From a virus, in IMG/VR virus record IMGVR_UViG_3300043425_000318, positions 1-58,621 of that record: DNA of 58,621 nt; one strand, given 5' to 3'. Under the pieces are notes generated by a model, which ran no database searches, was not told where the DNA came from, and saw only the letters and a list, made by a program, of their open reading frames with translations. Of the stretch, positions 2,658 through 12,443 are shown piece by piece (position 1 is the stretch's first letter; each line of letters begins with the position of its first letter). The translations under genes and the position numbers were made by a program.

Positions 2658-3422
2658 ATGGAAGAAGAAATCCTAGAACCAACAAAAAGATTAACTCGTA
2701 AAGAAAAAAGACTTCTTCGACAAGGAAAAACAAAAGAAAGTTCTCAACAGCAAAAGCTAAATTTTAACCTAAGACATTTCGATCCTCTTACAGATAACCA
2801 GAGGATTGCTTTTAGATCTTTTGCTGACGAAAAGAATCTAATGTTACATGGTATAGCCGGAACTGGTAAATCGTTCATGGCGATGTATCTTTCTCTGAAA
2901 CAGATACTTAATAATCCGGACAGTTCTTTTAAAAAGATCGTTATCGTGCGTACAGTCGTGCCTACCAGAGACATGGGCTTCCTGCCAGGTAACTCTAAAG
3001 AAAAGACTAAGGTTTATGAGGCTCCTTACTACGCAATATGCTCCGAGCTATTTGGTAGAGGTGATGCCTATGAGTATCTAAAGCAGAGAAACTTGGTTGA
3101 GTTTATTTCTACTTCCTTTATTCGTGGTATTACCCTCAACGATTGTATTGTAATTGTGGATGAAATGCAGAATGCTACTCTTCACGAACTAGATTCAGTA
3201 ATCACACGTGTAGGACATAATTGTAAGATCATATTCTGCGGCGATTTCCGCCAGTCTGACTTTACAAGAGAACACGAGAAGAATGGATTGACTGACTTCA
3301 TGAGAGTTATCAAGAGTATGCGTTCTTTTAATTTGATTGAGTTTAATGCAGAAGATATTGTTAGATCTGCTCTGGTTAAAGAATATATAATTCTAAAAGA
3401 TAAGATGAGGATTGTGGTATGA
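2658..3422 (+). CDS. phoH: PhoH-like P-loop ATPase
   Basis: A 254-residue PhoH-family ATPase. The basic N-terminus (TRKEKRLLRQG) leads into a P-loop GIAGTGKS at about residues 65-72, RTVVPTRDMGFLPGN, a Walker B IVIVDEMQNAT near residue 158 and the sensor CGDFRQSD. PhoH proteins are widespread in phages; an RNA-linked helicase role is proposed but not settled. The start is set at the ATG at 2658, which has an AGAGG site; an upstream ATG at 2568 would overlap the previous gene. The stop overlaps the next start. Confidence 0.9.
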   Translation: MEEEILEPTKRLTRKEKRLLRQGKTKESSQQQKLNFNLRHFDPLTDNQRIAFRSFADEKNLMLHGIAGTGKSFMAMYLSLKQILNNPDSSFKKIVIVRTVVPTRDMGFLPGNSKEKTKVYEAPYYAICSELFGRGDAYEYLKQRNLVEFISTSFIRGITLNDCIVIVDEMQNATLHELDSVITRVGHNCKIIFCGDFRQSDFTREHEKNGLTDFMRVIKSMRSFNLIEFNAEDIVRSALVKEYIILKDKMRIVV

Positions 3423-4446: not shown

Positions 4447-4756
4447 TAACGCCTAAGATAACAAGAGTCCAGAATAATTCTGACCAAGACTTTATCTTAG
4501 GTTTTCTTCCTCTTCTCTTAGAGAAACCGCCAGTAGTTTTACTGGTAGTATACCAAGAGTTCTGGCCTACCTTTTGCGACTGAGTGAACCTAGATCTACC
4601 TGTCTTTTGATTTGTAGAATAGGTTACTCTTGTTCTACCTATCCCCTTACCATTACTGTAAGACATGGAAGAAGTTGTGCCTCTGCCACCTCCCCAAGAA
4701 GTAGTAGTTCTAATTGGTCCTGATTTCTTTGAAATTCTAGTTCTTACTGTTCCCAT
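4427..4756 (-). CDS. Small basic membrane-anchored protein
   Basis: 109 residues, unrecognised. The first 85 residues are low-complexity, rich in Ser, Thr, Gly, Arg and Lys (TTTSWGGGRGTTSS, SRFTQSQKVG, SKRRGRKPK). The end is one hydrophobic segment (LFWTLVILGVIILFVL), a C-terminal membrane anchor. It resembles from memory small phage proteins of unknown role that carry repeated basic GKT-type motifs. It lies convergent with the nuclease gene and downstream of the deaminase. Confidence 0.65.
   Translation of the reverse strand: MGTVRTRISKKSGPIRTTTSWGGGRGTTSSMSYSNGKGIGRTRVTYSTNQKTGRSRFTQSQKVGQNSWYTTSKTTGGFSKRRGRKPKIKSWSELFWTLVILGVIILFVL
4452..4501 (+). terminator. Possible terminator between converging genes
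   Basis: CCTAAGATAA (4452-4461) and TTATCTTAGG (4492-4501) form a perfect 10-bp stem with a nested CAGAA/TTCTG hairpin, followed on the plus strand by TTTTCTT. It lies just past the plus-strand nuclease gene and inside the 3' end of the opposing gene. Confidence 0.5.
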
Positions 4757-4764
4757 ATGATTAT

Positions 4765-5178
4765 TTAGGCGTAGTCAATCCCATACATCCCAGGATCGTC
4801 TGTGGAATACACAACCATCTTAATTCCAAAATGTTCGATAGCTTTCTTACATCCTGAACAAGGTTCTGCTCTTCCATCAACCCACCCACTATCTCCTTTC
4901 TGTTTCTTTTTTACTCTATAAACATAGAGAGTCGCACGCTTCATATCTTCAGCGTCAATGTGTTTGAGCGCATTGACGATACAATCAATCTCTGCGTGCT
5001 TAAAGATTGATTCTGAATTCTTGGAGAATCTTTTTTGCAGGGGATGAGACTTATCAGAGTTATATCCTATGCTGATTACCTCGTTTTGGATAACGAGGCA
5101 AGCAGCGAGTTTCATTTTCATTTTATTGGAAATAGCCATTCGACGAGTAAAGGCCATATACTTATCGTCGCGAGTCAT
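4765..5178 (-). CDS. dCMP/cytidine deaminase-family protein
   Basis: A zinc-dependent deaminase-fold enzyme of 137 residues. From the ATG at 5178: His61-Ala-Glu63 (zinc ligand and catalytic acid) and Pro106-Cys107-Ser-Gly-Cys110 (two zinc ligands). Likely converts dCMP to dUMP or acts on a related base to adjust nucleotide pools, as T4 Cd does. A TTG start at 5190 would add four residues, but the ATG sits just after GGGTAG and is preferred. It has its own promoter and a leader hairpin just upstream. Confidence 0.82.
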   Translation of the reverse strand: MTRDDKYMAFTRRMAISNKMKMKLAACLVIQNEVISIGYNSDKSHPLQKRFSKNSESIFKHAEIDCIVNALKHIDAEDMKRATLYVYRVKKKQKGDSGWVDGRAEPCSGCKKAIEHFGIKMVVYSTDDPGMYGIDYA

Positions 5179-5257: not shown

Positions 5258-5662
5258 TTAAATTCTAACATCAGCAAGCTGAGTACCGATCTTAAAAATT
5301 CGATTACAATATAGAGCTCGCCTAGTCATAACATCTTCTCGAACAAAAGAATATCTTCGGCCAGTTTTAATTTGTGAGCCTTTTTGTGTCGTCCAATCAT
5401 AGTCTCCATACTTGATTTCTTCGTATTCGCCATCAGACGAATAAACAATGCGAGTCCTAGTAGAAGGAACATCTCCTACGGAAGTACCAACGAATTCATA
5501 GGTTTCTTTATTACGACGAACTCCTAGAAACTTAGCAGTATAAACATTAACTCTATGAGAATAACCAGTAGTAACAACTACTACCTCATCTCCAGGATTA
5601 ATAGTCTGACCGATTTCGTTAGTGAAAGGTTCTGCCACTACATTCGTATAACACTTGCCCAT
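5258..5662 (-). CDS. Hypothetical protein, beta-rich
   Basis: 134 residues, unrecognised. Sequence alternates short hydrophobic and charged stretches (GDEVVVVTTGYSHRVNVYTAKFLGV, split by turns), as in a small beta-barrel, and has two Cys (residue 4 and CNR near 118). There is no signal peptide or membrane segment. It begins just downstream (in transcription) of the tRNA array and ends immediately before the deaminase promoter. A GGAGATAG ribosome site precedes the ATG. Confidence 0.65.
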   Translation of the reverse strand: MGKCYTNVVAEPFTNEIGQTINPGDEVVVVTTGYSHRVNVYTAKFLGVRRNKETYEFVGTSVGDVPSTRTRIVYSSDGEYEEIKYGDYDWTTQKGSQIKTGRRYSFVREDVMTRRALYCNRIFKIGTQLADVRI

Positions 5663-5701
5663 TATCTATCTCCGTTTTATCATGATGAATTAAATCAAAA
5701 C

Positions 5702-5776
5702 TGGAGCGGTAAGTGGGAGTCGAACCCACGCTTACAGGGTGGAAGCCTATCGTGCTACCGTAACACTTCTACCGCT
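5702..5776 (-). tRNA. tRNA-Gly(TCC)
   Basis: Acceptor AGCGGTA/TACCGCT pairs fully. The anticodon loop CTTCCAC gives TCC. The T-loop is canonical and CCA is encoded. Last tRNA of the array in transcription order. Confidence 0.95.
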
Positions 5777-5783
5777 TAACTTT

Positions 5784-5858
5784 TGGATGGGGATCAAGGA
5801 TTCGAACCTCAACTACCTGAGTCAGAGTCAGACGTTCTGCCAGTTAAACTAATCCCCA
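5784..5858 (-). tRNA. tRNA-Gln(CTG)
   Basis: Starts TGGGGAT with a U1-A72 pair typical of tRNA-Gln. Loop CTCTGAC gives anticodon CTG. CCA is encoded after discriminator T. It pairs with the second Gln tRNA (TTG) at 6827. Confidence 0.92.
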
Positions 5859-5859
5859 A

Positions 5860-5936
5860 TGGTGCCGGCAGCAGGAGTCGAACCCACGACCTTCTCATTA
5901 CAAGTGAGTTGCTCTACCGTCTGAGCTATACCGGCA
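5860..5936 (-). tRNA. tRNA-Thr(TGT)
   Basis: Acceptor TGCCGGT/GCCGGCA, loop CTTGTAA (anticodon TGT), canonical T-loop, encoded CCA. Its 5' end directly abuts the stop codon of the secreted-protein gene at 5937. Confidence 0.94.
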
Positions 5937-6347
5937 TTAATACGCTGGAACTAAACAACTCTGAACTAAATCTGCTCCACCAAAAAGTTGACCAAATAAA
6001 TCATAAGGATCAATATACATGGCACAGTTACCAGAAGTTGCCACAGGAACGTTAGTAGGATATCCTGGAGGCGAATAGATATTCGATGCTTCTGGTGTTG
6101 GTACAGAGTTATATACAGGAACCAACGGTACAGGTTGAACAGGAACTGCTACTGGAACTGCAATGGTAGAACTGATTGGTCCAGGACCAGCAGGAACATA
6201 CTCAATTGCAACAGGAACAGTCTTTACAACCTTTTTAATAACTTTCTTTTGAACATTGATATTACAGTTATTACAAACATCAATGTTATAATTACTGGCT
6301 GCAGCTGGAGTTGATACCAACATGAGAGCAATAACAATGTTTTTCAT
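5937..6347 (-). CDS. Secreted Val/Pro-rich protein
   Basis: 136 residues from the ATG at 6347; a longer frame to 6515 only reads through the neighbouring gene. Residues 1-22 (MKNIVIALMLVSTPAAA) are a Sec-type signal peptide. The mature part starts SNYNIDVCNNCNINVQKK with two Cys, and continues as a low-complexity stretch rich in Val, Pro and Ala (IAVPVAVPVQPVPLVPVY). The C-terminus holds two more Cys. Likely exported to the periplasm or envelope. It follows the next gene by one base. Function unknown; superinfection or envelope effects are possible. Confidence 0.68.
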   Translation of the reverse strand: MKNIVIALMLVSTPAAASNYNIDVCNNCNINVQKKVIKKVVKTVPVAIEYVPAGPGPISSTIAVPVAVPVQPVPLVPVYNSVPTPEASNIYSPPGYPTNVPVATSGNCAMYIDPYDLFGQLFGGADLVQSCLVPAY

Positions 6348-6348
6348 A

Positions 6349-6636
6349 TCAGTAACCGTAGTAGTATGCACGTCCTGGGCGATAATAATACGCAGGAGGA
6401 GCAACAGGGACAGCATAATAACCACCATACGGAGGATAATACCCATATCCTGGTCTACCATAATTCCAATATGGATTGGCAGCACTAGCGATAGCTGCTC
6501 CAGCCAGAGCACCAATAGCTAAACCAGCAGCAGCATTATAACCATAACCGTAGCCATAACCTCCCCAATACTGGGCGTTTGCTGGTTGCATACTCAAACC
6601 AAGAAACAATGATAACGATAAGATAATCTTTTTCAT
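6349..6636 (-). CDS. Secreted Gly/Tyr-rich protein with glycine-zipper stretch
   Basis: 95 residues. A signal peptide (MKKIILSLSLFLGLSMQPANA) with a good AxA cleavage site is followed by GGYGYGYGYN, an AAAGLAIGALAGAAIASAA segment that looks like a glycine-zipper membrane element, and a Tyr/Pro/Gly tail (YYPPYGGYYAV). Composition resembles small bacterial envelope proteins. A GGAGAGAG ribosome site and an upstream late element (6682-6689) suggest late expression together with the following gene. The role is unknown. Confidence 0.72.
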   Translation of the reverse strand: MKKIILSLSLFLGLSMQPANAQYWGGYGYGYGYNAAAGLAIGALAGAAIASAANPYWNYGRPGYGYYPPYGGYYAVPVAPPAYYYRPGRAYYYGY

Positions 6637-6681
6637 TTTCTCTCTCCAAAAGAGAGGACTAACCGTGGGCCCTCACGAGTC

Positions 6682-6689
6682 TATTTATA
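6682..6689 (-). promoter_or_regulatory. Late promoter element (TATAAATA) for the secreted-protein pair
   Basis: Minus strand TATAAATAG, about 45 nt before the ATG at 6636. A perfect match to the T4 late consensus recognised by gp55-type sigma. Confidence 0.65.
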
Positions 6690-6704
6690 GCGACCAACCT
6701 AAAC

Positions 6705-6780
6705 TGGCTCCCGAGGAAGGACTCGAACCTCCGACAAAGTGATTAACAGTCACCTACTCTACCAACTGAGTTACACGGGA
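6705..6780 (-). tRNA. tRNA-Asn(GTT)
   Basis: Anticodon arm GGTGA-CTGTTAA-TCACT gives GTT. Canonical T-loop TTCGAGT, encoded CCA. The acceptor TCCCGTG/CTCGGGA has one T-T mismatch at the sixth pair. Confidence 0.93.
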
Positions 6781-6789
6781 ATATAACAT

Positions 6790-6817
6790 ATTGTAACTTA
6801 TTTAGTCACAAAGTCAA
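6790..6817 (-). promoter_or_regulatory. Sigma70-like promoter before tRNA-Asn
   Basis: Minus strand TTGACT (6817-6812), 16 nt, TACAAT (6795-6790), about 10 nt before the tRNA. Confidence 0.65.
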
Positions 6818-6826
6818 GTTCTTTTT

Positions 6827-6900
6827 TGGATCGGGGACAGGGACTCGAACCCCGACAATCAGATTCAAAGTCTGACGTTCTACCATTAAACTATCCCCGA
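6827..6900 (-). tRNA. tRNA-Gln(TTG)
   Basis: Acceptor TCGGGGA/TCCCCGA, anticodon arm TCAGA-CTTTGAA-TCTGA (TTG), encoded CCA. Its anticodon arm is copied exactly (15 nt) in the structured RNA at 11654-11910. Confidence 0.95.
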
Positions 6901-6906
6901 ATAAAC

Positions 6907-6998
6907 TGGTGCGTGGAGATGGATTCGAACCACCAATGTTACCACAAAGGGAACGGATTTACAGTCCGTCGCAACACCACCGTCGTTGCCGTCCACGC
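6907..6998 (-). tRNA. tRNA-Tyr(GTA)
   Basis: Class II tRNA with a long variable arm. Acceptor GCGTGGA/TCCACGC, anticodon arm ACGGA-CTGTAAA-TCCGT (GTA), encoded CCA. Confidence 0.95.
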
Positions 6999-7120
6999 AT
7001 ATTCCATACACCTTATCGGTTTAGCCCTTTAGCTAAAGCAGTCAACAATCCGATATTCACGAGCTTTCCCTGCTGTTATTCTCGTTAGGTCTCTCCCGTG
7101 TATCTAGAAAACGGGATAAC
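6999..7120 (-). ncRNA. Structured spacer A: three hairpins with possible kissing loop
   Basis: 122 nt between tRNA-Tyr and tRNA-Ile with no tRNA or gene. Stems seen: TATCGG (7014-7019)/CCGATA (7050-7055), containing TTTAGC (7020-7025)/GCTAAA (7032-7037); ACGAG (7059-7063)/CTCGT (7081-7085); CCCGT (7095-7099)/ACGGG (7111-7115). AGCAG (7037-7041) can pair with CTGCT (7070-7074) in the next loop. The strand is assumed from the flanking tRNAs. Confidence 0.45.
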
Positions 7121-7196
7121 TGGTTGTCCCTGCTGGCTCCGACCCAGCGACCTCAGTCTTATCAGGACTGCGCTCTACCAACTGAGCTAAGGGACA
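7121..7196 (-). tRNA. tRNA-Ile(GAT) with unusual T-loop
   Basis: Acceptor TGTCCCT/AGGGACA, anticodon arm CAGTC-CTGATAA-GACTG (GAT), encoded CCA. The T-loop reads GTCGGAG instead of TTCGAAN, so T54 is replaced; the T-stem GCTGG/CCAGC is intact. Confidence 0.92.
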
Positions 7197-7216
7197 TTAA
7201 TTCTTACTGTTCACAT

Positions 7217-7245
7217 ATATTACCCTAGATTGACATAAAAGTCAA
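7217..7245 (-). promoter_or_regulatory. Sigma70-like promoter before tRNA-Ile(GAT)
   Basis: Minus strand TTGACT (7245-7240), 17 nt, TAATAT (7222-7217), about 20 nt upstream of the tRNA. Confidence 0.65.
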
Positions 7246-7251
7246 CCAATT

Positions 7252-7325
7252 TGGTACTGGGACCAGGTATCGATCCTGGACTCTGAGGTCCACAACCTCA
7301 GGTGCTACCACTACACTACCCCAGC
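7252..7325 (-). tRNA. tRNA-His(GTG)
   Basis: Anticodon arm TGAGG-TTGTGGA-CCTCA gives GTG. Acceptor GCTGGGG/TCCCAGT with G-U pairs at both ends, encoded CCA. The T-loop is ATCGATA, lacking T54. Confidence 0.92.
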
Positions 7326-7329
7326 AAAT

Positions 7330-7407
7330 TGGAGTTGCGGATGGGATTCGAACCCACATGAAGAGGTTTTGCAGACCTTGCCGTAACCGTTCCGGACACA
7401 CCGCAAC
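7330..7407 (-). tRNA. tRNA-Cys(GCA)
   Basis: Acceptor GTTGCGG/CCGCAAC with discriminator T (U73, a Cys identity base), loop CTGCAAA (GCA), encoded CCA. Confidence 0.94.
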
Positions 7408-7413
7408 ATAAAC

Positions 7414-7490
7414 TGGAGTCCCTGGTAGGATTCAAACCCACAACCCTCGGTTTCGAAGACCGATGCTCTATTCAGTTGAGCTACAGAGAC
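7414..7490 (-). tRNA. tRNA-Arg(TCG)
   Basis: Acceptor GTCTCTG/CAGGGAC, anticodon arm TCGGT-CTTCGAA-ACCGA (TCG), T-loop TTTGAAT, encoded CCA. Discriminator T is unusual for Arg. Confidence 0.92.
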
Positions 7491-7491
7491 A

Positions 7492-7568
7492 TGGTGCCCT
7501 CGGTCAGATTCGAACTGACACTTGGTTGATTTTGAGTCAACTGCCTCTGCCGGTTGGGCTACGAGGGC
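7492..7568 (-). tRNA. tRNA-Leu(CAA), short variable region
   Basis: Acceptor GCCCTCG/CGAGGGC, anticodon arm GTTGA-CTCAAAA-TCAAC (CAA), T-loop TTCGAAT, encoded CCA. Only five variable-region bases are present; bacterial Leu tRNAs normally have a long variable arm. Confidence 0.88.
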
Positions 7569-7591
7569 AAGTAAGTTTCCTGGTGCGCTAT

Positions 7592-7804
7592 CTACCCATT
7601 AGGCATAGAAGAAGCGTGGAAACTCTTATTCTTTACAATAATCAACATGCGTTCACACAACAAACTCTCATATGTATAAACGCCGGGATCAAGATTGATC
7701 CAGTTGTCTCTCGGTTTCACAGGCATATCGCAGTATACCGATACAGTCTTATCTTTTCCTACAATACCCGCTCTCAATCTAAACAACGTTTTTTCGTTGT
7801 TCAT
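7592..7804 (-). CDS. Small hypothetical protein inside the tRNA array
   Basis: Seventy residues from the ATG at 7804, chosen because AAGGAA precedes it; upstream in-frame codons have no ribosome site. Sequence MNNEKTLFRLRAGIVGKDK with later CDMPVKPRDNW and ESLLCERMLIIVKNKS. No known motif, signal or membrane segment. It lies between tRNA-Leu(CAA) and tRNA-Leu(TAG), with a late-type element 100 nt upstream. Confidence 0.5.
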   Translation of the reverse strand: MNNEKTLFRLRAGIVGKDKTVSVYCDMPVKPRDNWINLDPGVYTYESLLCERMLIIVKNKSFHASSMPNG

Positions 7805-7903
7805 GATATATTTCCTTTTCGTAGGATGGTGCTTGTTCCTAGAATTCAACTAGATCCTTCCGTTCTTCAGACGGACGTGCGCAGCAGCTACACCAAACAA
7901 GCA

Positions 7904-7911
7904 TATTTATA
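7904..7911 (-). promoter_or_regulatory. Possible late promoter element (TATAAATA)
   Basis: Minus strand TATAAATATG just below the CCA end of tRNA-Leu(TAG), about 100 nt before the small gene at 7592-7804. Confidence 0.4.
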
Positions 7912-7912
7912 A

Positions 7913-7989
7913 TGGTGCCCCTGGTAAGATTCGAACTTACAACCTCCTGATTCTAAGTCAGGCATCTCTTCCAGTTGGACTACAGAGGC
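7913..7989 (-). tRNA. tRNA-Leu(TAG), short variable region
   Basis: Anticodon arm CCTGA-CTTAGAA-TCAGG (TAG), acceptor GCCTCTG/CAGGGGC, encoded CCA. Again only five variable bases, as in the Leu(CAA) gene. Confidence 0.88.
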
Positions 7990-8098
7990 ATAAACTTACG
8001 GGATCGTTTAGTAGCAGGTTTACCCCCTGGTCATTTATACTACTACTGCGTATCCCTGCCAGCAACCCCTCTGTGCGTCCACAGCGATTCACTGGAAT
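7990..8098 (-). ncRNA. Structured spacer B: nested hairpins
   Basis: About 109 nt between tRNA-Val and tRNA-Leu(TAG). Nested stems GGGAT (8000-8004)/ATCCC (8052-8056), AGTAG (8010-8014)/CTACT (8040-8044), CAGG (8015-8018)/CCTG (8026-8029), then a separate CTGTG-CGTC-CACAG hairpin (8071-8084). No ORF or T-arm. Function unknown. Confidence 0.4.
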
Positions 8099-8174
8099 TG
8101 GTAGACGATGACAGGTTCGAACTGCCGACCTTCGCTGTGTAAAAGCGTTGCTCTCCCAACTGAGCTAATCGTCC
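8099..8174 (-). tRNA. tRNA-Val(TAC)
   Basis: Acceptor GGACGAT/ATCGTCT, loop TTTACAC (TAC), T-loop TTCGAAC, encoded CCA. Confidence 0.93.
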
Positions 8175-8359
8175 ATAATTCTGTCTGTTTTTCTTCCCCA
8201 GGAAACAGAAAACCTAGTGTGCAAGGTTCCGCCCGCTACGCAGACGGTCTCTGGAAGGCACATAACAGTCGGGCTGTTGGAACGCCTGCCCTGGCGGTTG
8301 AAATCTCGACTCCAACTGTGTTTCAACAGACCTTTCCATTGAAACAATTCAACATCAAA
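8175..8359 (-). ncRNA. Structured spacer C: four hairpins
   Basis: 185 nt between tRNA-Pro and tRNA-Val. Perfect stems: CTGTTT (8185-8190)/AAACAG (8203-8208); TGTGC (8218-8222)/GCACA (8258-8262); AACAG-TCGGG-CTGTT (8264-8278); GTTGAAA (8297-8303)/TTTCAAC (8321-8327). A weak 60-codon frame (8165-8347) overlaps the tRNA and is not credited. Confidence 0.4.
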
Positions 8360-8436
8360 TGGTCGGGGTAGCAGGATTCGAACCTACGACATCTTGCTCC
8401 CAAAGCAAGCACTCTACCAGACTGAGCTACACCCCG
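8360..8436 (-). tRNA. tRNA-Pro(TGG)
   Basis: Acceptor CGGGGTG/TACCCCG, anticodon arm CTTGC-TTTGGGA-GCAAG (TGG), T-loop TTCGAAT, encoded CCA. Confidence 0.95.
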
Positions 8437-8443
8437 ATAAAAC

Positions 8444-8517
8444 TGGCACCGGCGGAAGGAGTCGAACCCTCGCCCTCTGTTTTGGAGACAGATGTGCTAC
8501 CGTAACACTTCACCGAT
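8444..8517 (-). tRNA. tRNA-Trp(CCA)
   Basis: Anticodon arm TCTGT-CTCCAAA-ACAGA (CCA), discriminator G, encoded CCA end, T-loop TTCGACT. Acceptor ATCGGTG/CGCCGGT uses two G-U pairs. Confidence 0.93.
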
Positions 8518-8523
8518 ATAAAC

Positions 8524-8618
8524 TGGAGGCCCGTTAGCGGTCAGATAGCACAATACAAGCAATGGACTGCTCGCATCTATCGACATGCACCCCGTAGATT
8601 TATATCCCGTGACGGGCC
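8524..8618 (-). ncRNA. Structured spacer D: tRNA-like acceptor with CCA but no tRNA core
   Basis: On the minus strand it starts GGCCCGT (8618-8612) and ends ACGGGCC-T-CCA (8534-8524): a perfect 7-bp helix, a discriminator and CCA, 95 nt in all. Inside are GCAT..ATGC, GATAG..CTATC and a CGAGCA-GTCCAT-TGCTTG hairpin, but no D-arm and no foldable T-arm. It may be a degenerate class II tRNA or a tRNA mimic. Confidence 0.45.
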
Positions 8619-8696
8619 AAGCACGGCACATAAGACACACATTGTCCTCGCACCTTTCGGCATAGCGGATCCAGTTTGAGGAATATGTATCTATAC
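8619..8696 (-). other. Gap with weak secondary structure
   Basis: Seventy-eight bases between element D and the odd tRNA(CAT). ACATA (8628-8632)/TATGT (8684-8688) encloses CCTC (8646-8649)/GAGG (8678-8681). No gene seen. Confidence 0.3.
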
Positions 8697-8772
8697 TGGA
8701 AGCGGGTGTGGGAACTGCCCCCACTTCTATCGGCGTATGAAACCGACAAGATACTAATACCTCCCACCCGCA
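8697..8772 (-). tRNA. tRNA(CAT) with non-canonical core (Met or Ile2)
   Basis: Seventy-six bases that fit tRNA numbering exactly: anticodon arm TCGGT-TTCATAC-GCCGA (CAT at 34-36), T-stem GTGGG/CCCAC, encoded CCA. But base 8 is G, the D-loop has no GG pair, the T-loop is GGCAGTT, and pair 1-72 is T-T. An unpaired 1-72 is a hallmark of initiator tRNA. It may be an initiator-like, Ile2-type or degenerate tRNA. Confidence 0.7.
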
Positions 8773-8781
8773 ATAAACTCT

Positions 8782-8809
8782 AGTATACTTTATTTAGTCA
8801 AGATGTCAA
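8782..8809 (-). promoter_or_regulatory. Sigma70-like promoter before tRNA(CAT)
   Basis: Minus strand TTGACA (8809-8804), 16 nt, TATACT (8787-8782), ending about 10 nt before the tRNA. Confidence 0.7.
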
Positions 8810-8817
8810 TAAAAAAG

Positions 8818-8901
8818 TGGCGGAGGATGAAGGAATCGAACCATCAACCTTTCGGTGGCGCAGTTTTCAAGACTGTGTGTGCACCATGCACGCCATCCTC
8901 C
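8818..8901 (-). tRNA. tRNA-Ser(TGA)
   Basis: Class II tRNA. Acceptor GGAGGAT/ATCCTCC, loop CTTGAAA (TGA), long variable arm, discriminator G, encoded CCA. Confidence 0.93.
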
Positions 8902-9068
8902 GTGTGTATATTTATCCAAGTTCTACACTTATCATCTAACTCACATTGTCTTGCTTCAGCGATCTTTCTTGGTATGAAAAATCTAGCATCAATAAAGTCC
9001 AATGCGAAATATATTATAAAAAATATCACACCAAAAGTAAAGGGATATTTTTCGTGTAGATATTTCAT
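8844..9068 (-). CDS. Possible small membrane protein overlapping tRNA-Ser
   Basis: Seventy-four codons from the ATG at 9068. Residues about 8-26 (PFTFGVIFFIIYFALDFI) form one membrane helix; the rest is polar with two Cys. The TAGGAGCTACCA end of tRNA-Glu supplies a ribosome site. The 3' third runs through tRNA-Ser on the same strand, which is unusual, so the true end or even coding status is uncertain. The AT-rich 165-base gap between the tRNAs otherwise shows nothing. Confidence 0.4.
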   Translation of the reverse strand: MKYLHEKYPFTFGVIFFIIYFALDFIDARFFIPRKIAEARQCELDDKCRTWINIHTEDGVHGAHTVLKTAPPKG

Positions 9069-9069
9069 T

Positions 9070-9144
9070 TGGTAGCTCCTAGGGGAATCGAACCCCTCTT
9101 CCAAGATTGAAAGTCTTGTGTCCTAACCGATAGACGAAGGAGCC
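9070..9144 (-). tRNA. tRNA-Glu(TTC)
   Basis: Acceptor GGCTCCT/AGGAGCT, anticodon arm CAAGA-CTTTCAA-TCTTG (TTC), T-loop TTCGATT, encoded CCA. Confidence 0.95.
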
Positions 9145-9160
9145 ATAAACTCATATTACC

Positions 9161-9188
9161 ATTATACCGTTTTCTGTCAAAAAGTCAA
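9161..9188 (-). promoter_or_regulatory. Sigma70 promoter (TTGACT-16-TATAAT) before tRNA-Glu
   Basis: Minus strand TTGACT (9188-9183), 16 nt, perfect TATAAT (9166-9161), about 17 nt before the tRNA. Confidence 0.75.
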
Positions 9189-9189
9189 G

Positions 9190-9280
9190 TGGCGGAGAGT
9201 GAGAGATTCGAACTCTCGGAACCGTGTTAGGGTTCAACTCGTTAGCAGTGAGCCGCCTTCGACCACTCGGCCAACTCTCC
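9190..9280 (-). tRNA. tRNA-Ser(GCT)
   Basis: Class II, acceptor GGAGAGT/ACTCTCC, loop CTGCTAA (GCT), long variable arm, discriminator G, encoded CCA. Confidence 0.94.
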
Positions 9281-9285
9281 ATAAT

Positions 9286-9377
9286 TGGTAGGCATGGTGG
9301 GACTCGAACCCACTGAAGAACACCCATCTGATGCTAAAGGCTTTATAAGAGCCTCCCCGCTACCCAGCGTCACGCCC
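9286..9377 (-). tRNA. tRNA with UAU anticodon and long variable arm (Ile?)
   Basis: Acceptor GGGCGTG/CATGCCT, anticodon arm AGGCT-CTTATAA-AGCCT (TAT), T-arm GTGGG-TTCGAGT-CCCAC, encoded CCA. Between anticodon arm and T-arm lie 24 bases with a CATC/GGTG hairpin, a class II variable arm not expected for Ile. The D-arm looks short (CGCT-GGGT-AGCG). Confidence 0.82.
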
Positions 9378-9391
9378 AAGATCATAAAACT

Positions 9392-9399
9392 TATAAATA
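9392..9399 (+). promoter_or_regulatory. Late promoter element (TATAAATA) for the inserted GIY-YIG-like gene
   Basis: Perfect plus-strand TATAAATA, 29 nt before the ATG at 9428 and opposite in direction to the tRNAs. Confidence 0.65.
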
Positions 9400-9427
9400 A
9401 TAGCAGCAGATACAAACGAGGCAAAAT

Positions 9428-9997
9428 ATGAAAGCGTACACTTACACTATAGTCCATATCACTACTGGTATTATTTATTACGGTGTCAGAAAATCTTCTA
9501 TAAATGATATTGGCGTTCAATACTTTTCTTCATCAAAAATAATCCAAAGACTTATTGAGTCTGAAGGTGTTGAAAACTTTTTATTTAAAATTAGAAGAAA
9601 ATTTAATACATACGAAGAAGCTCGTAACCACGAAACAAAGTTTCTTCAAAGAGTTAAAGCAGTTTCTAACCCTAAATTCTATAACCAGGCAATATCATCA
9701 CCAAGAGTATGTTTAAAAGACTCTGTATCAGAGGATAGAAGAAGAAAATCTATATCTGATTCGATGAAACTGTTATGGCAATGTAAAAAATATAGAGACA
9801 GACAAACATTTAACAAAATTTCCAAAGAAGAAAGAGTAGAAAGAGGAAGAAAAGGCGGTTTAGCTGCAGCTAAAACAAGAACCAAAAACCCAAATCCTAC
9901 TTATAGTCAAGTTCAAATAACTAAAAATGGTAAATTTAAAACAATAAAAAGAAATCAAGTTCCTGCGTATAAAAAATACGGTTGGGAACGAGTCTGA
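9428..9997 (+). CDS. GIY-YIG-type homing endonuclease in the tRNA array
   Basis: 189 residues on the opposite strand to the tRNAs. The N-terminus YTIVHITTGIIYYGVRKS is a GIY-YIG variant. EARNHETKFLQRV supplies the conserved Glu region. The C-terminal half is basic, with ERVERGRKGGLAAAKTR like NUMOD-type DNA-binding segments. It is AT-rich against its surroundings. It carries its own late element upstream and a terminator at 10115-10144, so it is a self-contained cassette like the seg genes of T4. Confidence 0.8.
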   Translation: MKAYTYTIVHITTGIIYYGVRKSSINDIGVQYFSSSKIIQRLIESEGVENFLFKIRRKFNTYEEARNHETKFLQRVKAVSNPKFYNQAISSPRVCLKDSVSEDRRRKSISDSMKLLWQCKKYRDRQTFNKISKEERVERGRKGGLAAAKTRTKNPNPTYSQVQITKNGKFKTIKRNQVPAYKKYGWERV

Positions 9998-10006
9998 TAT
10001 GGGACC

Positions 10007-10095
10007 ATAGAAAGATACACTCAGAATGCTGACCTACTAACAGTTTCCAACTCTCTTAGTAGCGGCATTGGAAATGTCTGAATGTATCTTTCTAT
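10007..10095. ncRNA. Structured RNA E: long helix closing an H-type pseudoknot
   Basis: A perfect 13-bp inverted repeat (10007-10019 with 10083-10095) is extended by TCAGA (10021-10025)/TCTGA (10077-10081). Inside, CTACTAA (10034-10040) pairs with TTAGTAG (10056-10062), and TTTCCAA (10044-10050) with TTGGAAA (10068-10074). The pairings interleave, so they form a pseudoknot. Either strand could carry it: the endonuclease transcript (+) or the tRNA transcript (-). Confidence 0.6.
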
Positions 10096-10114
10096 AGACC
10101 ATAAAATAAATGGG

Positions 10115-10144
10115 CAATGCCAGTTGCAACTAACATTGTTTTTT
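10115..10144 (+). terminator. Terminator for the inserted GIY-YIG gene
   Basis: CAATG (10115-10119) and CATTG (10134-10138) enclose the palindrome AGTTGCAACT and are followed by TTTTTT on the plus strand, ending the plus-strand cassette. Confidence 0.6.
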
Positions 10145-10147
10145 CAT

Positions 10148-10190
10148 CTATGTCGCAAGCCCGCTGGGGAGTCGAACCCCCATAGACGCC
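10148..10190 (-). ncRNA. T-arm-like fragment (tRNA remnant or mimic)
   Basis: Minus strand GGGG-TTCGACT-CCCC is a perfect tRNA T-arm and is followed by AGCGGGC-T, but only about 20 nt separate it from the next tRNA, so no D-arm or anticodon arm exists and CCA is absent. TCTATG (10148-10153)/CATAGA (10181-10186) form a stem around it. Confidence 0.4.
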
Positions 10191-10202
10191 CATATTCAAA
10201 AA

Positions 10203-10278
10203 TGGCGGGAATGACGAGTTTCGATCTCGCTACCTCAGCAGTGACAGTGCTGCGCTCTCCCAATTGAGCTACATCCCC
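10203..10278 (-). tRNA. tRNA-Asp(GTC)
   Basis: Acceptor GGGGATG/CATTCCC, anticodon arm CAGCA-CTGTCAC-TGCTG (GTC), discriminator G, encoded CCA. T-loop ATCGAAA lacks T54. Confidence 0.94.
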
Positions 10279-10287
10279 AATGTTAAT

Positions 10288-10423
10288 TTTCGGGCAGACG
10301 AGGACACACATTCGTCTCTTCTCCACATTTGTGCAGCGCCGTGGCTAGCCGTATATACTTGCACCACAAATGCGCTCCTGTCGCTACGTGCTGACAGGTA
10401 TGTGGCTACGTATGCACCCGAAA
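10288..10423 (-). ncRNA. Structured RNA G: closed four-way junction of three hairpins
   Basis: Terminal helix TTTCGGG (10288-10294)/CCCGAAA (10417-10423) encloses three perfect hairpins: AGACGA (10296-10301)/TCGTCT (10312-10317), CATTTGTG (10326-10333)/CACAAATG (10365-10372) and CCTGTC (10377-10382)/GACAGG (10393-10398). This is a cloverleaf-like layout of 136 nt with no tRNA sequence motifs. It sits between tRNA-Ala and tRNA-Asp. Confidence 0.55.
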
Positions 10424-10425
10424 CT

Positions 10426-10501
10426 TGGTGGAGGATACCGGGATCGAACCGATGGCCTTCTGAATGCAAATCAGACGCTCTCCCAACTGAGCTAATCCCC
10501 C
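10426..10501 (-). tRNA. tRNA-Ala(TGC)
   Basis: Acceptor GGGGGAT/ATCCTCC, anticodon arm TCTGA-TTTGCAT-TCAGA (TGC), T-loop TTCGATC, encoded CCA. Confidence 0.95.
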
Positions 10502-10509
10502 AAAAACTT

Positions 10510-10517
10510 TATTTATA
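10510..10517 (-). promoter_or_regulatory. Late-type element (TATAAATA) before tRNA-Ala
   Basis: Minus strand TATAAATAAAG ends 9 nt before the tRNA start and overlaps the stop of the 66-residue gene. Confidence 0.5.
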
Positions 10518-10713
10518 CTGCAAGACTCAAGAAATACTGATCAAGGTATTCATCAAATCCAAAAAGATCCCTAACCAAGTTGTTTAGAATCTTTTCTTGA
10601 ACTTCTTTATTATGACGATATCCATGAGGCCACCAAAGATGGCGAAGATACTCACGATAATGTTCAGAATACGAAAGATCAACCATTTCCATAAATGTAT
10701 ACTTGCGCTTCAT
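10513..10713 (-). CDS. Small hypothetical protein in the tRNA array
   Basis: Sixty-six residues from the ATG at 10713; a GTG at 10722 would add three. MKRKYTFMEMVDLSYSEHYREYLRHLWWPHGY, split between two amphipathic stretches, then NNLVRDLFGFDEYLDQYF. Rich in aromatic residues, no signal or membrane helix. The AGGTGAG ribosome site overlaps the end of the HNH gene. Unrecognised. Confidence 0.55.
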   Translation of the reverse strand: MKRKYTFMEMVDLSYSEHYREYLRHLWWPHGYRHNKEVQEKILNNLVRDLFGFDEYLDQYFLSLAV

Positions 10714-10722
10714 GACACTCAC

Positions 10723-11115
10723 CTATATTAGTTTAGAGTACTTATGTCTTTCTTTGTTTCCTTTGCCTTTATTCAAAGCTTTCCAAGTAGGCGTCAATGA
10801 ATGACAGTTTGGACAAAGAACTTTAAGGTTATCTTCTTTACAATTTTTACAATCACCATCTATATGATCGATTTCTAATGGCGTTTTACCTGTAATTGGA
10901 TTGATTTTATCCCAACCACATTCTGAACAACTATAATTAGATTTCTCTAACATATAGTTTCTTATATGCGATTTAATCCTCAATCCTGCTTTATAACCTT
11001 CATCGTTTCCATCAAACCATTCTTGTAATAGTTTTTTGGTTCTGAGTTCGCCTTGACATTTATTATTGCAATATTTTCCAACTTTTATTTCTTTACCACA
11101 ATTTAAGCAATGCAT
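10723..11115 (-). CDS. HNH homing endonuclease
   Basis: 130 residues. The N-terminal zinc-finger-like CLNCGKEIKVGKYCNNKCQG and central CSECGWDKINP are paired Cys sites. The HNH core is PLEIDHIDGDCKNCKEDNLKVLCPNCHSLTPTW, broken here as motif EIDHIDGD, NLKVLC and CPNCHSLT. This is a common free-standing phage HNH type. It is AT-rich, sits between tRNA-Ala and tRNA-Lys, and has a late element 31 nt upstream. Likely mobile. Confidence 0.9.
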   Translation of the reverse strand: MHCLNCGKEIKVGKYCNNKCQGELRTKKLLQEWFDGNDEGYKAGLRIKSHIRNYMLEKSNYSCSECGWDKINPITGKTPLEIDHIDGDCKNCKEDNLKVLCPNCHSLTPTWKALNKGKGNKERHKYSKLI

Positions 11116-11145
11116 CTAATACCTCATAAACTGACGCCTTTTGCT

Positions 11146-11153
11146 TATTTATA
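11146..11153 (-). promoter_or_regulatory. Late promoter element (TATAAATA) for the HNH gene
   Basis: Minus strand TATAAATAAG, 31 nt before the ATG at 11115, in an AT-rich stretch. Confidence 0.6.
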
Positions 11154-11166
11154 AATTTATAAATTT

Positions 11167-11242
11167 TGGTAGACCCACTCAGATTTGAACTGAGATCACA
11201 TGGATTAAAAGTCCAGTACTCTACCTATTGAGCTATGGGTCC
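11167..11242 (-). tRNA. tRNA-Lys(TTT)
   Basis: Acceptor GGACCCA/TGGGTCT, loop CTTTTAA (TTT), T-loop TTCAAAT, encoded CCA. Confidence 0.95.
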
Positions 11243-11251
11243 ATATAAAAC

Positions 11252-11335
11252 TTGATACACAACGCCTCTCCACGTATCTGGTAGCTATCTCCATACCCGC
11301 TTCCTTGAGGTCGGCGTCCCGTTGTTGTGTATCAA
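11252..11335 (-). ncRNA. Structured RNA H: 84 nt closed by a 12-bp helix
   Basis: TTGATACACAAC (11252-11263) is the exact complement of GTTGTGTATCAA (11324-11335). Inside, CCTC/GAGG and GTAT/ATAC are nested. The helix ends two bases short of the CCA of tRNA-Lys(CTT) and ten bases from tRNA-Lys(TTT), so it fills the spacer between two Lys tRNAs. Confidence 0.55.
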
Positions 11336-11337
11336 TA

Positions 11338-11413
11338 TGGTAGACCGAGAGGGGATCGAACCCACGACAAGCCGATTAAGAGTCGGCTGCTCTACCAACT
11401 GAGCTATCGGTCC
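11338..11413 (-). tRNA. tRNA-Lys(CTT)
   Basis: Acceptor GGACCGA/TCGGTCT, anticodon arm GCCGA-CTCTTAA-TCGGC (CTT), T-loop TTCGATC with one T-stem mismatch, encoded CCA. Confidence 0.94.
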
Positions 11414-11415
11414 AT

Positions 11416-11579
11416 AATGTTACTGCGTCAACGGATTAGCATAATGACCGGACTTTGCAACCGGAACCTGGATCCCATACGAGACCTTTTTACGGTCTCT
11501 CCGGTCACCTTTGCTAACTTTACAACACATTACTGTCAACGTTTCGAACCGTAGTCTAATCCGTTGACGCAGTAACATT
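11416..11579 (-). ncRNA. Structured RNA I: 24-bp terminal helix with competing strand
   Basis: Bases 11416-11439 are the exact reverse complement of 11556-11579. Inside are TGACCGGA (11445-11452)/TCCGGTCA (11500-11507) capping GAGACC (11481-11486)/GGTCTC (11494-11499). GTCAACG at 11535-11541 repeats the terminal-helix strand at 11427-11433, so either can pair with CGTTGAC (11562-11568). A T-loop-like TTCGAA (11543-11548) follows. The helix runs into the CCA of tRNA(CAT). Confidence 0.65.
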
Positions 11580-11653
11580 GGTGCTGGTAGTTGGGATCAA
11601 ACCAACCTTAGACGCCTTATGAGAGCGTTTCGACATCCTGCCGACCTACCAGC
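11579..11653 (-). tRNA. tRNA-Met(CAT) (or Ile2)
   Basis: Acceptor GCTGGTA/TACCAGC, loop CTCATAA (CAT), T-arm GTTGG-TTTGATC-CCAAC, encoded CCA. Unlike the copy at 8697 its core looks normal. Whether it reads AUG or, after lysidine modification, AUA cannot be told by eye. Confidence 0.9.
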
Positions 11654-11910
11654 GAAATTGGTCCGCCCTATCAGGGGATTATCTCCAACCCAATTTAATC
11701 TTATCCCATGCCGACGGACAACATGAGACTACACCATTCCTGTTAAACTAAATGTACACCCGGAATGGCCGATATACACTTATTCGCAGTCAGTGTTTCC
11801 CTCTCCTATCAACCCTTGACGGGATGCATTCTACGGAAACATATCGAATGCACATCGGCTATTTGCTCTCTGCAAATCCACAAACAGATTCAAAGTCTGC
11901 CGTGGAATTC
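11654..11910 (-). ncRNA. Structured RNA region J: pseudoknot, junction and anticodon-arm copy
   Basis: 257 nt between tRNA-Thr and tRNA(CAT). AAATTGG (11655-11661)/CCAATTT (11690-11696) interleaves with GTCCG (11661-11665)/CGGAC (11715-11719). Then CCATTCC (11734-11740)/GGAATGG (11762-11768); GCCGAT (11768-11773)/ATCGGC (11854-11859) enclosing ACACT/AGTGT and TGCATTC (11825-11831)/GAATGCA (11846-11852); ATTTGC/GCAAAT (11861-11877); and CCAC/GTGG (11878-11905) enclosing an exact copy of the Gln(TTG) anticodon arm (11885-11899). It may be more than one RNA. Confidence 0.55.
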
Positions 11911-11986
11911 TGGTGCTGCTAGAGAGAATCGAACTCCCGACCCACTGATTACTAATCAGTTGCTCTACCAACTGAGCTACAGCAGC
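11911..11986 (-). tRNA. tRNA-Thr(AGT)
   Basis: Acceptor GCTGCTG/TAGCAGC, anticodon arm ACTGA-TTAGTAA-TCAGT giving AGT, T-loop TTCGATT, encoded CCA. A34 is rare in bacterial Thr tRNAs. First tRNA of the array in transcription order. Confidence 0.92.
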
Positions 11987-11992
11987 GTTGTA

Positions 11993-12256
11993 TTAAAGGC
12001 CAGCGGCCAGAGCTCGATAACCAGCAGCAATTAGCTTGCGGTTTGGAGTACCAGCACGATACTTAGCAACAGTCTCACCCTTGGCATTCTTGCTCTCGTT
12101 TAGATAGATAGCATAACCCATCTGACGAATCTGGTAAACAGCATCATGCGGATTAGCGACACCATAACGAGCCTTAATCTGCTGAGCTGTTAGCTGCTCG
12201 CCACGAGCAACAAGAGCCTCGAACACCTTATCAACCTTAGTAGCATTCTGAACCAT
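11993..12256 (-). CDS. Small winged-helix-like phage protein
   Basis: 87 residues. The middle, LTAQQIKARYGVANPHDAVYQIRQMGYAIYLN, reads as a helix-turn-helix followed by a short wing, a layout common in small proteins of T4-like cyanophages. The C-terminus is Ala/Arg-rich (NRKLIAAGYRALAAGL). Likely DNA- or RNA-binding, target unknown. It ends six bases before tRNA-Thr, so the tRNA array may be transcribed through it. Confidence 0.72.
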   Translation of the reverse strand: MVQNATKVDKVFEALVARGEQLTAQQIKARYGVANPHDAVYQIRQMGYAIYLNESKNAKGETVAKYRAGTPNRKLIAAGYRALAAGL

Positions 12257-12269
12257 TATATATTCTCCA

Positions 12270-12443
12270 TTAAAAGATATCTACAACACGACCATTAGAG
12301 TCAACTGCACGGATCCGAGCATCCGGAAACTGCCACTGCAGCTGGCGCATTCCATCCCGATACAAGAGAGGAATATTTTGAGTATACGAATACGTACGCC
12401 AGTTGCCCGTCTGATCCTGAAGCTGAATTTCGATCATGTCCAT
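12270..12443 (-). CDS. 57-residue hypothetical protein
   Basis: A short open frame starting MDMIEIQLQDQTGNWRTYSY and ending ARIRAVDSNGRVVDIF. AAGGGG lies 7 nt before the ATG and a sigma70-like promoter sits about 30 nt upstream. The sequence has the alternating pattern of a small beta sheet (DSNGRVVDIF, a beta hairpin). It fills an otherwise empty 200-base gap between two small genes. Unrecognised. Confidence 0.62.
   Translation of the reverse strand: MDMIEIQLQDQTGNWRTYSYTQNIPLLYRDGMRQLQWQFPDARIRAVDSNGRVVDIF

What the first reader, a model, noticed from the sequence alone, without database searches (positions are those of the whole stretch)
6999..11910. A family of structured non-tRNA RNAs interleaved with the phage tRNA array
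About ten spacers of 85-260 nt between tRNA genes have no ORF and no complete tRNA, yet carry perfect inverted repeats (up to 24 bp), multi-arm junctions and possible pseudoknots. Several begin or end within a few bases of a tRNA, so they look like RNA units released with the tRNAs. They share no obvious primary sequence. T4 has two stable RNAs of unknown role (C and D) among its tRNAs, and large phages carry GOLLD/ROOL RNAs near tRNAs; these are smaller and much more numerous. They could be decoys, tRNA-processing aids or anti-defence RNAs.
Basis: partly seen in the sequence, partly recalled or inferred. Interest (0 to 1): 0.9.

Follow-up and report, generated by a model that had tools for sequence, protein, structure and literature searches.

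The report
Structured RNA genes among phage tRNAs
Between the 27 tRNA genes of this phage lie at least four short, unrelated, folded RNAs whose stems are kept by matched mutations in other phages and which have different tRNA neighbours in different phages; they match no family in the RNA library searched and their job is unknown.

Summary
The array (27 tRNAs, all 20 amino acids, minus strand, 5702-11986) has structured spacers, including a perfect 24-bp inverted repeat, but they are not one family and not all are supported. Four are separate RNAs whose helices show compensatory changes in other phages: F10 (6999-7120, probably with a pseudoknot), F11 (7574-7624), F7 (11254-11333) and F8 (11418-11577). 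None matches Rfam. Of 29 copies, 24 start or end within 11 nt of a tRNA, and the neighbouring tRNAs differ between phages, as if the RNAs were exchangeable genes of the array. F1 and F6 are conserved, but covariation is not above chance. F3, F5 and F9 have no homologue in the loci held and F2 only a 3' piece; F9 carries a 19/20 copy of the array's tRNA-Gln(UUG) anticodon arm. One listed spacer is mostly an ORF. Models of F7, F8 and F11 find nothing convincing in phages T4, DLP6 and Melnitz. Most likely the RNAs are co-transcribed with the tRNAs, freed by tRNA maturation and act in trans as stable RNAs, in the manner of T4 RNA C and D. The structure is shown by covariation; release, stability and any decoy role are inferred.

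The parts
5702..11986 (-). tRNA array: 27 tRNA genes, all 20 amino acids
   Evidence: ARAGORN; Rfam tRNA
6999..7120 (-). F10: structured RNA, six helices, one of them a proposed pseudoknot; between tRNA-Ile and tRNA-Tyr
   Evidence: 4 distinct sequences: all 116 cells paired, 7 of 29 pairs changed on both sides (5/500 shuffles reach this number, 0/500 the score); between Glu and Arg in L307
7574..7624 (-). F11: 51-nt RNA, 7-bp outer helix, inner helix CGCU/AGCG, CACC bulge; 5 nt before tRNA-Leu(caa)
   Evidence: 5 of 7 outer pairs covary in 7 sequences; covariance model R1
7595..7804 (-). small ORF, not part of the RNA set
   Evidence: tblastn relative 40% over 52 aa in nine loci of the L044 group
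7990..8098 (-). F1: conserved spacer, candidate RNA
   Evidence: L025, 81% identical in aligned columns; compensated pairs not above chance (376/500); folding 6/300
8177..8228 (-). F2 3' element, possible H-type pseudoknot (my reading)
   Evidence: recurs in L010 (E 4e-5) and weakly in L077 (E 0.75)
8518..8696 (-). F3: candidate without homologue in the loci held
   Evidence: folding 13/300; only identical copies; no blastn match in phages
10005..10105 (-). F5: long hairpin just behind the homing-endonuclease gene; strand of action unknown
   Evidence: 0/300 on both strands; only identical copies
10279..10425 (-). F6: conserved spacer, candidate RNA
   Evidence: L044 86% identical; compensated pairs not above chance (400/500); folding 17/300
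11254..11333 (-). F7: structured RNA closed by a helix of 10 pairs plus one A-C mismatch in the window; hairpin with GACG loop
   Evidence: 5 distinct sequences, 5 of 14 pairs changed on both sides (22/500 shuffles reach this number, 0/500 the score); different neighbours in L117
11418..11577 (-). F8: structured RNA closed by a 22-bp helix, core CGGUUCGAAACGU
   Evidence: 10 distinct sequences: 99.5% of 220 cells paired, 10 of 22 pairs changed on both sides, 0/500 shuffles
11654..11910 (-). F9: candidate without homologue in the loci held; 11880-11899 copies the tRNA-Gln(UUG) anticodon arm (19/20)
   Evidence: folding 4/300; anticodon-arm match 32.2 bits, best of 100 shuffled sets 28.2

Best explanation
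The array is mixed: besides 27 tRNAs it holds several unrelated small structured RNAs. Shown: helices kept by compensatory change in four of them, limits close to tRNA ends in most copies, and different tRNA neighbours in different phages. Inferred: they move as units; they are transcribed in one strand with the tRNAs, set free when the neighbouring tRNAs are matured (RNase P at the tRNA behind, 3' tRNA processing at the tRNA before) and, in F7, F8 and F11, protected by a closing helix. As stable RNAs of infection they act in trans, in the manner of T4 RNA C and D. My best guess for the action is binding or baiting of host factors that handle or attack tRNA. Step by step: selected RNA structure 0.95; exchangeable genes of the array 0.8; accumulation as separate stable RNAs 0.55; bait for tRNA-directed factors 0.2.
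For: F8: 10 of 22 pairs changed on both sides, 99.5% of cells paired, 0/500 shuffles for these. F11: 5 of 7 outer pairs covary. In the held loci all 10 distinct matches to the F11 motif with an outer helix of at least 7 bp lie within 70 nt of a tRNA; of 25 distinct matches with 5 bp or fewer, 24 have no tRNA on the same strand of the locus held and one has it 4.7 kb away. F7: 5 of 14 pairs. F10: 7 of 29, nothing broken. A pairwise test that presupposes no structure: F10 0/500; F11 0/500 and 16/500; F8 against L052 4/500; F7 19, 27 and 51 of 500. Spacing: F10 3-4 nt behind and 5-9 nt before tRNAs in 4 of 4; F7 10-11 nt before a tRNA in 5 of 5; F11 within 9 nt of a tRNA in 9 of 10; F8 2-5 nt before a tRNA in 6 of 10. 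Neighbours differ: F10 Ile/Tyr or Glu/Arg; F8 Met/Lys, Ser/Ala, or before Asn or Glu; F11 before Leu, Phe or Trp or behind Asn. F7, F8 and F11 occur at one place each in the 136-kb sister contig. F9 carries an anticodon-arm copy. T4 RNAC and RNAD lie in a tRNA cluster and are late RNAs of unknown function, Northern assay (PMC9697503, passages).
Against: No transcript data. F1 and F6 show no covariation above chance. F3, F5 and F9 have only identical copies and F2 only its 3' piece among the loci held. F8 against L025 fails the pairwise test (342/500; I blame the alignment). One of the five measures, further pair types, is not above shuffles in any of the four (F8 180, F10 343, F11 109 and F7 447 of 500). 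Copies were gathered partly by patterns and, for F8, by a matching 9-nt arm, so core identity and part of the pairing are selected for. G-U against A-C departures, 7 to 2, do not settle the strand (p 0.18). The whole-spacer helix test finds 0 of 28 in four cultured phages. For the anticodon-arm idea: of 29 near-copies in spacers 20 have a T-arm behind them, i.e. are missed tRNAs, and the reverse-complement control gives 7 hits. F8 stands 84-119 nt from the next tRNA in 4 of 10 copies.
Confidence: 0.5

Rival explanations
1. Cis-acting processing or insulation elements: the helices place or block RNase cuts so that the tRNA precursor is taken apart correctly, and have no role once freed.
For: They sit in the tRNA-sense strand, and 24 of 29 copies start or end within 11 nt of a tRNA.
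Against: 9 of the 26 gaps between neighbouring tRNAs of the array are only 1-10 nt long, so those tRNAs do without such an element; the same RNA stands before different tRNAs, and behind one F11 copy the next tRNA is 747 nt away; F10 is 94% identical over its whole length among four sequences.
Confidence: 0.25
2. DNA-level elements: palindromes or recombination and homing sites that happen to lie in the array.
For: Two endonuclease genes lie in the array; F5 touches one of them; the arms of perfect repeats can be kept alike by gene conversion.
Against: F10 and F11 have short interrupted helices with long conserved stretches between them, and F10 a crossing helix with a covarying pair, unlike palindromes; G-U pairs outnumber A-C 7 to 2, though not significantly.
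Confidence: 0.08
3. Decayed tRNA genes and neutral spacer, with thermodynamic stability by chance.
For: F2, F3 and F6 do not fold better than shuffles at the 2% level; tRNA-like pieces exist at 10159-10202 and in F9.
Against: Covariation speaks against it for F7, F8, F10 and F11. It stays open for the 5' part of F2, F3, F6 and F9.
Confidence: 0.1

Closest known systems
T4 RNA C and RNA D (species 1 and 2)
   Same: Small RNAs of 139 and 119 nt encoded in a phage tRNA cluster; late, function unknown (PMC9697503, passages).
   Different: No match of models R1, R2, R3 at E<=0.1 in the whole T4 record; T4 has two, here at least four.
GOLLD RNA (RF02032)
   Same: Phage and prophage RNA often near tRNA islands (PMC12286853, passages); L190 holds a GOLLD and an F11 in one tRNA array.
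   Different: No GOLLD match in the window at gathering score or in 5600-12300 to E 3; the Rfam model has 416 positions, these RNAs are 51-160 nt.
ROOL RNA
   Same: Large structured RNA near phage tRNA islands (PMC12286853, passages).
   Different: No match in the window.
Phage tRNAs that evade tRNA-cutting defences
   Same: Same kind of gene array; a setting where RNA baits would pay (PMC10264068: abstract start and one passage; PMC11555353: abstract start and two passages).
   Different: Those are decoding tRNAs; these RNAs are not called as tRNA by ARAGORN or Rfam.

Membership tests
tRNA | cloverleaf recognised by ARAGORN or Rfam RF00005 | tested here: not met
   none of the four RNAs is called
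GOLLD (RF02032) | match to the Rfam model at its gathering score | tested here: not met
   window without match; L190 shows that the search works, 189 bits
ROOL | match to the Rfam model at its gathering score | tested here: not met
T4 RNA C/D | encoded among the tRNA genes of a phage, same strand | tested here: met
T4 RNA C/D | common descent, seen as a covariance-model match | tested here: not met
   R1 (F11), R2 (F7), R3 (F8) on the T4 record: no match at E<=0.1; no model was made for F10
T4 RNA C/D | accumulates as a separate stable RNA in infection | not testable with these tools
   no transcript data for this phage
Any Rfam 15 family | match at gathering score | tested here: not met
   21 matches, all tRNA

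The most novel reading that the evidence does not exclude
Phage tRNA arrays are general RNA-gene arrays: many unrelated, fast-turning small RNA families are swapped between positions like tRNAs, alongside GOLLD in some phages, and serve as a changeable set of baits against host factors that attack or handle tRNA; F9 with its tRNA-Gln anticodon arm would be one such bait.
Probability: 0.2. Interest if true: 0.92.

Novelty: new variant of a known kind. Interest (0 to 1): 0.7.

Why it matters
T4 RNA C and D were still of unknown function in 2022 (PMC9697503, passages; that they have been known for decades is recalled), and GOLLD and ROOL near phage tRNAs are likewise unexplained (PMC12286853, passages). 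A phage clade with four covarying RNAs in one array, each recurring in other phages, turns one-off oddities into comparative material: conserved cores can be mutated, and the RNAs can be sought in cultured phages with known hosts. It also means that spacers in phage tRNA arrays should not be read as empty.

Tried and rejected
One common family: models R1, R2 and R3 each find only one place in the window's sister contig, at three different places; F10 has no model. Known family: Rfam negative. Cultured phages by blastn: eight spacers queried, seven without any match (F8, F9, F3, F2 at E<=0.01; F7, F6, F1 at E<=1), F11 only 18-21-nt matches at E 6; F10 and F5 were not queried on their own.

Weak model hits not counted as members: R3 in L096 (E 0.0096, 0.0023), L190 (0.34 and 0.0084), L018 (0.089), L057, L034, L041 (0.93), Melnitz (0.068); R1 in DLP6 (0.091), a second place in the L272 record (0.076), and 25 of 44 matches with E 0.006 or more.

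Rows dropped: F8 pattern matches gave 15 distinct entries, 11 with a matching closing arm, of which two are the same RNA, so 10 went into the alignment; the four left out are L092 (cut by the contig end), L096, L100 and L102; L100 and L102 have no tRNA in the locus. F10: 4 of 7 distinct pattern matches; the other three have no tRNA and share nothing else with it by eye. The matches for F7 and F11 were limited to those within 260 nt of a tRNA; one search dropped that limit for F11. In one search spacers overlapping annotated genes were left out for the cultured phages only.

Literature: eight searches listed, among the 8 to 20 rows shown each, no title or abstract start on a set of small RNAs inside phage tRNA arrays; the library holds open-licence papers only. 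Passages only were read in PMC9697503, PMC12286853, PMC9004378, PMC11555353, PMC10264068, PMC9964418 and PMC2864571.

Notebook slips: says 7 of 56 relatives' spacers, one search gives 7 of 69; one search says 26 F11-like sequences without the helix, one search gives 25.
Full report
Setting. The window is a 58,621-base virus record of IMG/VR. Its clamp-loader protein is closest, among 50,697 phage records, to Stenotrophomonas phage DLP6 (62.7%) and Methylophilales phages of the Melnitz group (61.7%), so I take it for a T4-like phage. ARAGORN finds 27 tRNA genes, all on the minus strand, 5702-11986, at least one for each of the 20 amino acids. The host is unknown.

What lies between the tRNAs. 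Of the 26 gaps, 9 are 1-10 nt. Four short AT-rich gaps (6781-6826, 7197-7251, 8773-8817, 9145-9189) hold minus-strand promoter-like sites that match 9 to 11 of 12 consensus bases, among them the two best of the region; but the number of such sites in the region, 15 against a mean of 12.3 in shuffles, is not unusual, and similar sites lie at 12283 and 9041. Two endonuclease genes sit in long gaps: 9428-9997 on the plus strand (homing endonuclease, PHROG E 5e-15; Pfam GIY-YIG E 0.0014, below its cut-off) and 10723-11115 on the minus strand (HNH, PHROG E 2e-15; Pfam below cut-off). An ORF at 7595-7804 has a relative at 40% over 52 aa in nine loci of the L044 group. The remaining spacers are the subject.

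Folding alone. On the tRNA strand six of eleven stretches are reached by at most 6 of 300 shuffles: 7574-7624, 7990-8098, 10005-10105, 11243-11337, 11414-11578 and 11654-11910; the other five are not that good. This is a weak test: 6999-7120 fails it (89/300) and is nevertheless one of the best supported RNAs.

F8 (11418-11577). The perfect 24-bp repeat is there. blastn found the RNA in relatives and a pattern scan with its core in further contigs. On ten distinct sequences the 22-bp closing helix is paired in 99.5% of 220 cells and 10 of 22 pairs are changed on both sides; no shuffle of 500 reaches this, nor the covariation score, while the number of pair types is not above shuffles (180/500); sliding the partner by one to three columns drops the paired share to 24-52%. 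Two cautions: the sequences were gathered with a pattern that contains CGGUUCGAAACGU, so the invariance of that segment is imposed, and only those with a matching 9-nt closing arm were taken, so part of the pairing is selected; the kinds of pair were not. Of the four entries left out one is cut by its contig end, and two have no tRNA in the locus. The segment looks like a tRNA T-arm (my reading). A pairwise test without a given structure supports F8 against L052 (4/500) but not against L025 (342/500), where I think the plain alignment is poor.

F11 (7574-7624). A 35-55-nt RNA with a 7-bp outer helix of which five pairs change on both sides, an inner helix CGCU/AGCG and a CACC bulge, in seven distinct sequences. 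The inner parts were in the search pattern, the outer helix was not. In a pattern search of all held loci that asked neither for the outer helix nor for tRNAs, all 10 distinct sequences with an outer helix of 7 bp or more lie within 70 nt of a tRNA; of 25 with 5 bp or fewer, 24 have no same-strand tRNA in the locus held and one has it 4.7 kb away. The 10 are not independent: they fall into about four lineages (the window's clade, L190, the L226 group, L010), some loci had been fetched for their arrays, and among the 25 about eight are versions of one sequence. The model R1 matched L010, not used to build it, at E 1e-8, five bases behind a tRNA-Asn.

F10 (6999-7120). A relative in L259 differs at 15 places; 10 of them form five compensated pairs, one more makes a G-U, none breaks a pair. 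Those helices were picked by eye, so a test over all helices possible in both sequences was run: 7 compensated pairs against 1.67 on average, 0/500. A scan then brought two more distinct sequences, which test the structure fixed before: all 116 cells pair, 7 of 29 pairs change on both sides (5/500 shuffles reach that number, none the score or the number of cells; pair types 343/500), three of them in one helix that differs in all four sequences. The crossing helix (GCAG/CUGC, elsewhere GAAG/CUUC) makes a pseudoknot likely, on one covarying pair.

F7 (11254-11333). Five distinct sequences, 5 of 14 pairs changed on both sides, 98.6% paired, score 0/500, number of such pairs 22/500, pair types 447/500, on an alignment fitted to the model. 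The pairwise tests give 19, 27 and 51 of 500. The one unpaired cell is an A-C in the window's own closing helix.

Not supported by covariation. F6 (86% identical to L044) and F1 (81% to L025 in aligned columns) are conserved between phages, but compensated pairs are not above chance (400/500 and 376/500). F3, F5 and F9 have only identical copies among the loci held, F2 only a 3' piece. F5 is a strong hairpin on both strands just behind the endonuclease stop codon and may belong to that gene.

Gene-like behaviour. F10 lies 3-4 nt behind and 5-9 nt before tRNAs in all four copies; F7 10-11 nt before a tRNA in all five; F11 within 9 nt of a tRNA in nine of ten; F8 2-5 nt before a tRNA in six of ten, 84-119 nt in the other four. 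The neighbours differ: F10 stands between Ile and Tyr in three and between Glu and Arg in L307; F8 between Met and Lys in the window, Ser and Ala in four others, before Asn or Glu in five; F7 between two Lys tRNAs in three, between Asp and Lys in L117 and before Lys in L118, where the tRNA before it, a tRNA-Asp, was missed by ARAGORN; F11 before Leu, Phe or Trp or behind Asn. This argues against a fixed role for one tRNA. In the 136-kb sister contig F11, F7 and F8 occur at one place each.

tRNA likeness. F9 holds a 19 of 20 copy of the array's own tRNA-Gln(UUG) anticodon arm, above the best of 100 shuffled sets, and the local fold shows it as a hairpin with a seven-base loop. A wider search over 208 spacers gave 29 near-copies of anticodon arms: 20 have a T-arm pattern behind them and are missed tRNAs, 9 including F9 do not, and several of those still look like tRNAs; the reverse-complement control gives 7 hits. 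I take F9 as a pointer, no more.

How general. In nine environmental arrays 7 of 69 spacers are closed end to end by one helix at p<=0.02, in the window 2 of 10, in four cultured phages (DLP6, KVP40, Aeh1, CcrColossus) 0 of 28; T4 had no spacer of that size (annotated genes were left out for the cultured phages only). The test is crude: it scores 0 of 13 in L190, a contig with 30 tRNAs that has an F11, a GOLLD RNA (189 bits) and four spacer RNAs that share one outer helix around unlike interiors. So mixed RNA arrays are not confined to the window's clade, but nothing here shows them in the cultured phages looked at.

What it most likely is. See Best explanation. RNA structure is shown by covariation and change of neighbours by position; movement as units, release by tRNA maturation and stability are inferred; the target is unknown. 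T4 RNAC and RNAD, the nearest analogue, are late RNAs still without known function (PMC9697503, passages). By descent these RNAs are not shown to belong to any named family; by manner they resemble T4 RNA C and D.

Noticed in passing
L190:311-775 (-): GOLLD RNA (RF02032, 189 bits) with a tRNA-Asn inside, in the same tRNA array as an F11 copy.
   Followed up: partly
L190:78-228, 2660-3004, 4753-4874, 6424-6592 (-): Four inter-tRNA RNAs share an outer helix of the kind UAUAAAAACACAUU / GUGUGUUUCUAUA, with small differences, around unlike interiors.
   Followed up: no
L190:5420-5546 (-): RNA closed by a 22-bp helix, 3 nt before tRNA-Lys; weak match to the F8 model (E 0.34, 0.0084; fold).
   Followed up: partly
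L025:7569-7680, L044:12220-12325, L052:14857-14961, L054:5162-5316, L068:19027-19231: tRNA-like RNA with 3' CCA, long variable arm and T-arm but, by my reading, an anticodon loop that varies from 3 to 9 nt; beside Phe and Leu tRNAs; not called by ARAGORN, and in L025, L044 and L052 not by Rfam.
   Followed up: partly
L044:14620-14760, L052:16658-16798, L027:9507-9649, L045:17831-17966: About 140-nt RNA between Cys and Ile tRNAs, closed by a 9-12-bp helix, core ACAGGCUCGUGCG; seven distinct sequences (for the helices).
   Followed up: no
window 8177-8228 (-), L010:5114-5166, L077:13402-13439: Recurring element that could form an H-type pseudoknot.
   Followed up: partly
window 10159-10202 (-): T-arm and acceptor 3' part of a lost tRNA directly behind tRNA-Asp, near the homing-endonuclease gene (read).
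   Followed up: no
window 9428-9997 (+) and 10723-11115 (-): Homing endonuclease and HNH endonuclease genes inside the tRNA array.
   Followed up: partly
window 5702-11986: The 27 tRNAs cover all 20 amino acids.
   Followed up: no
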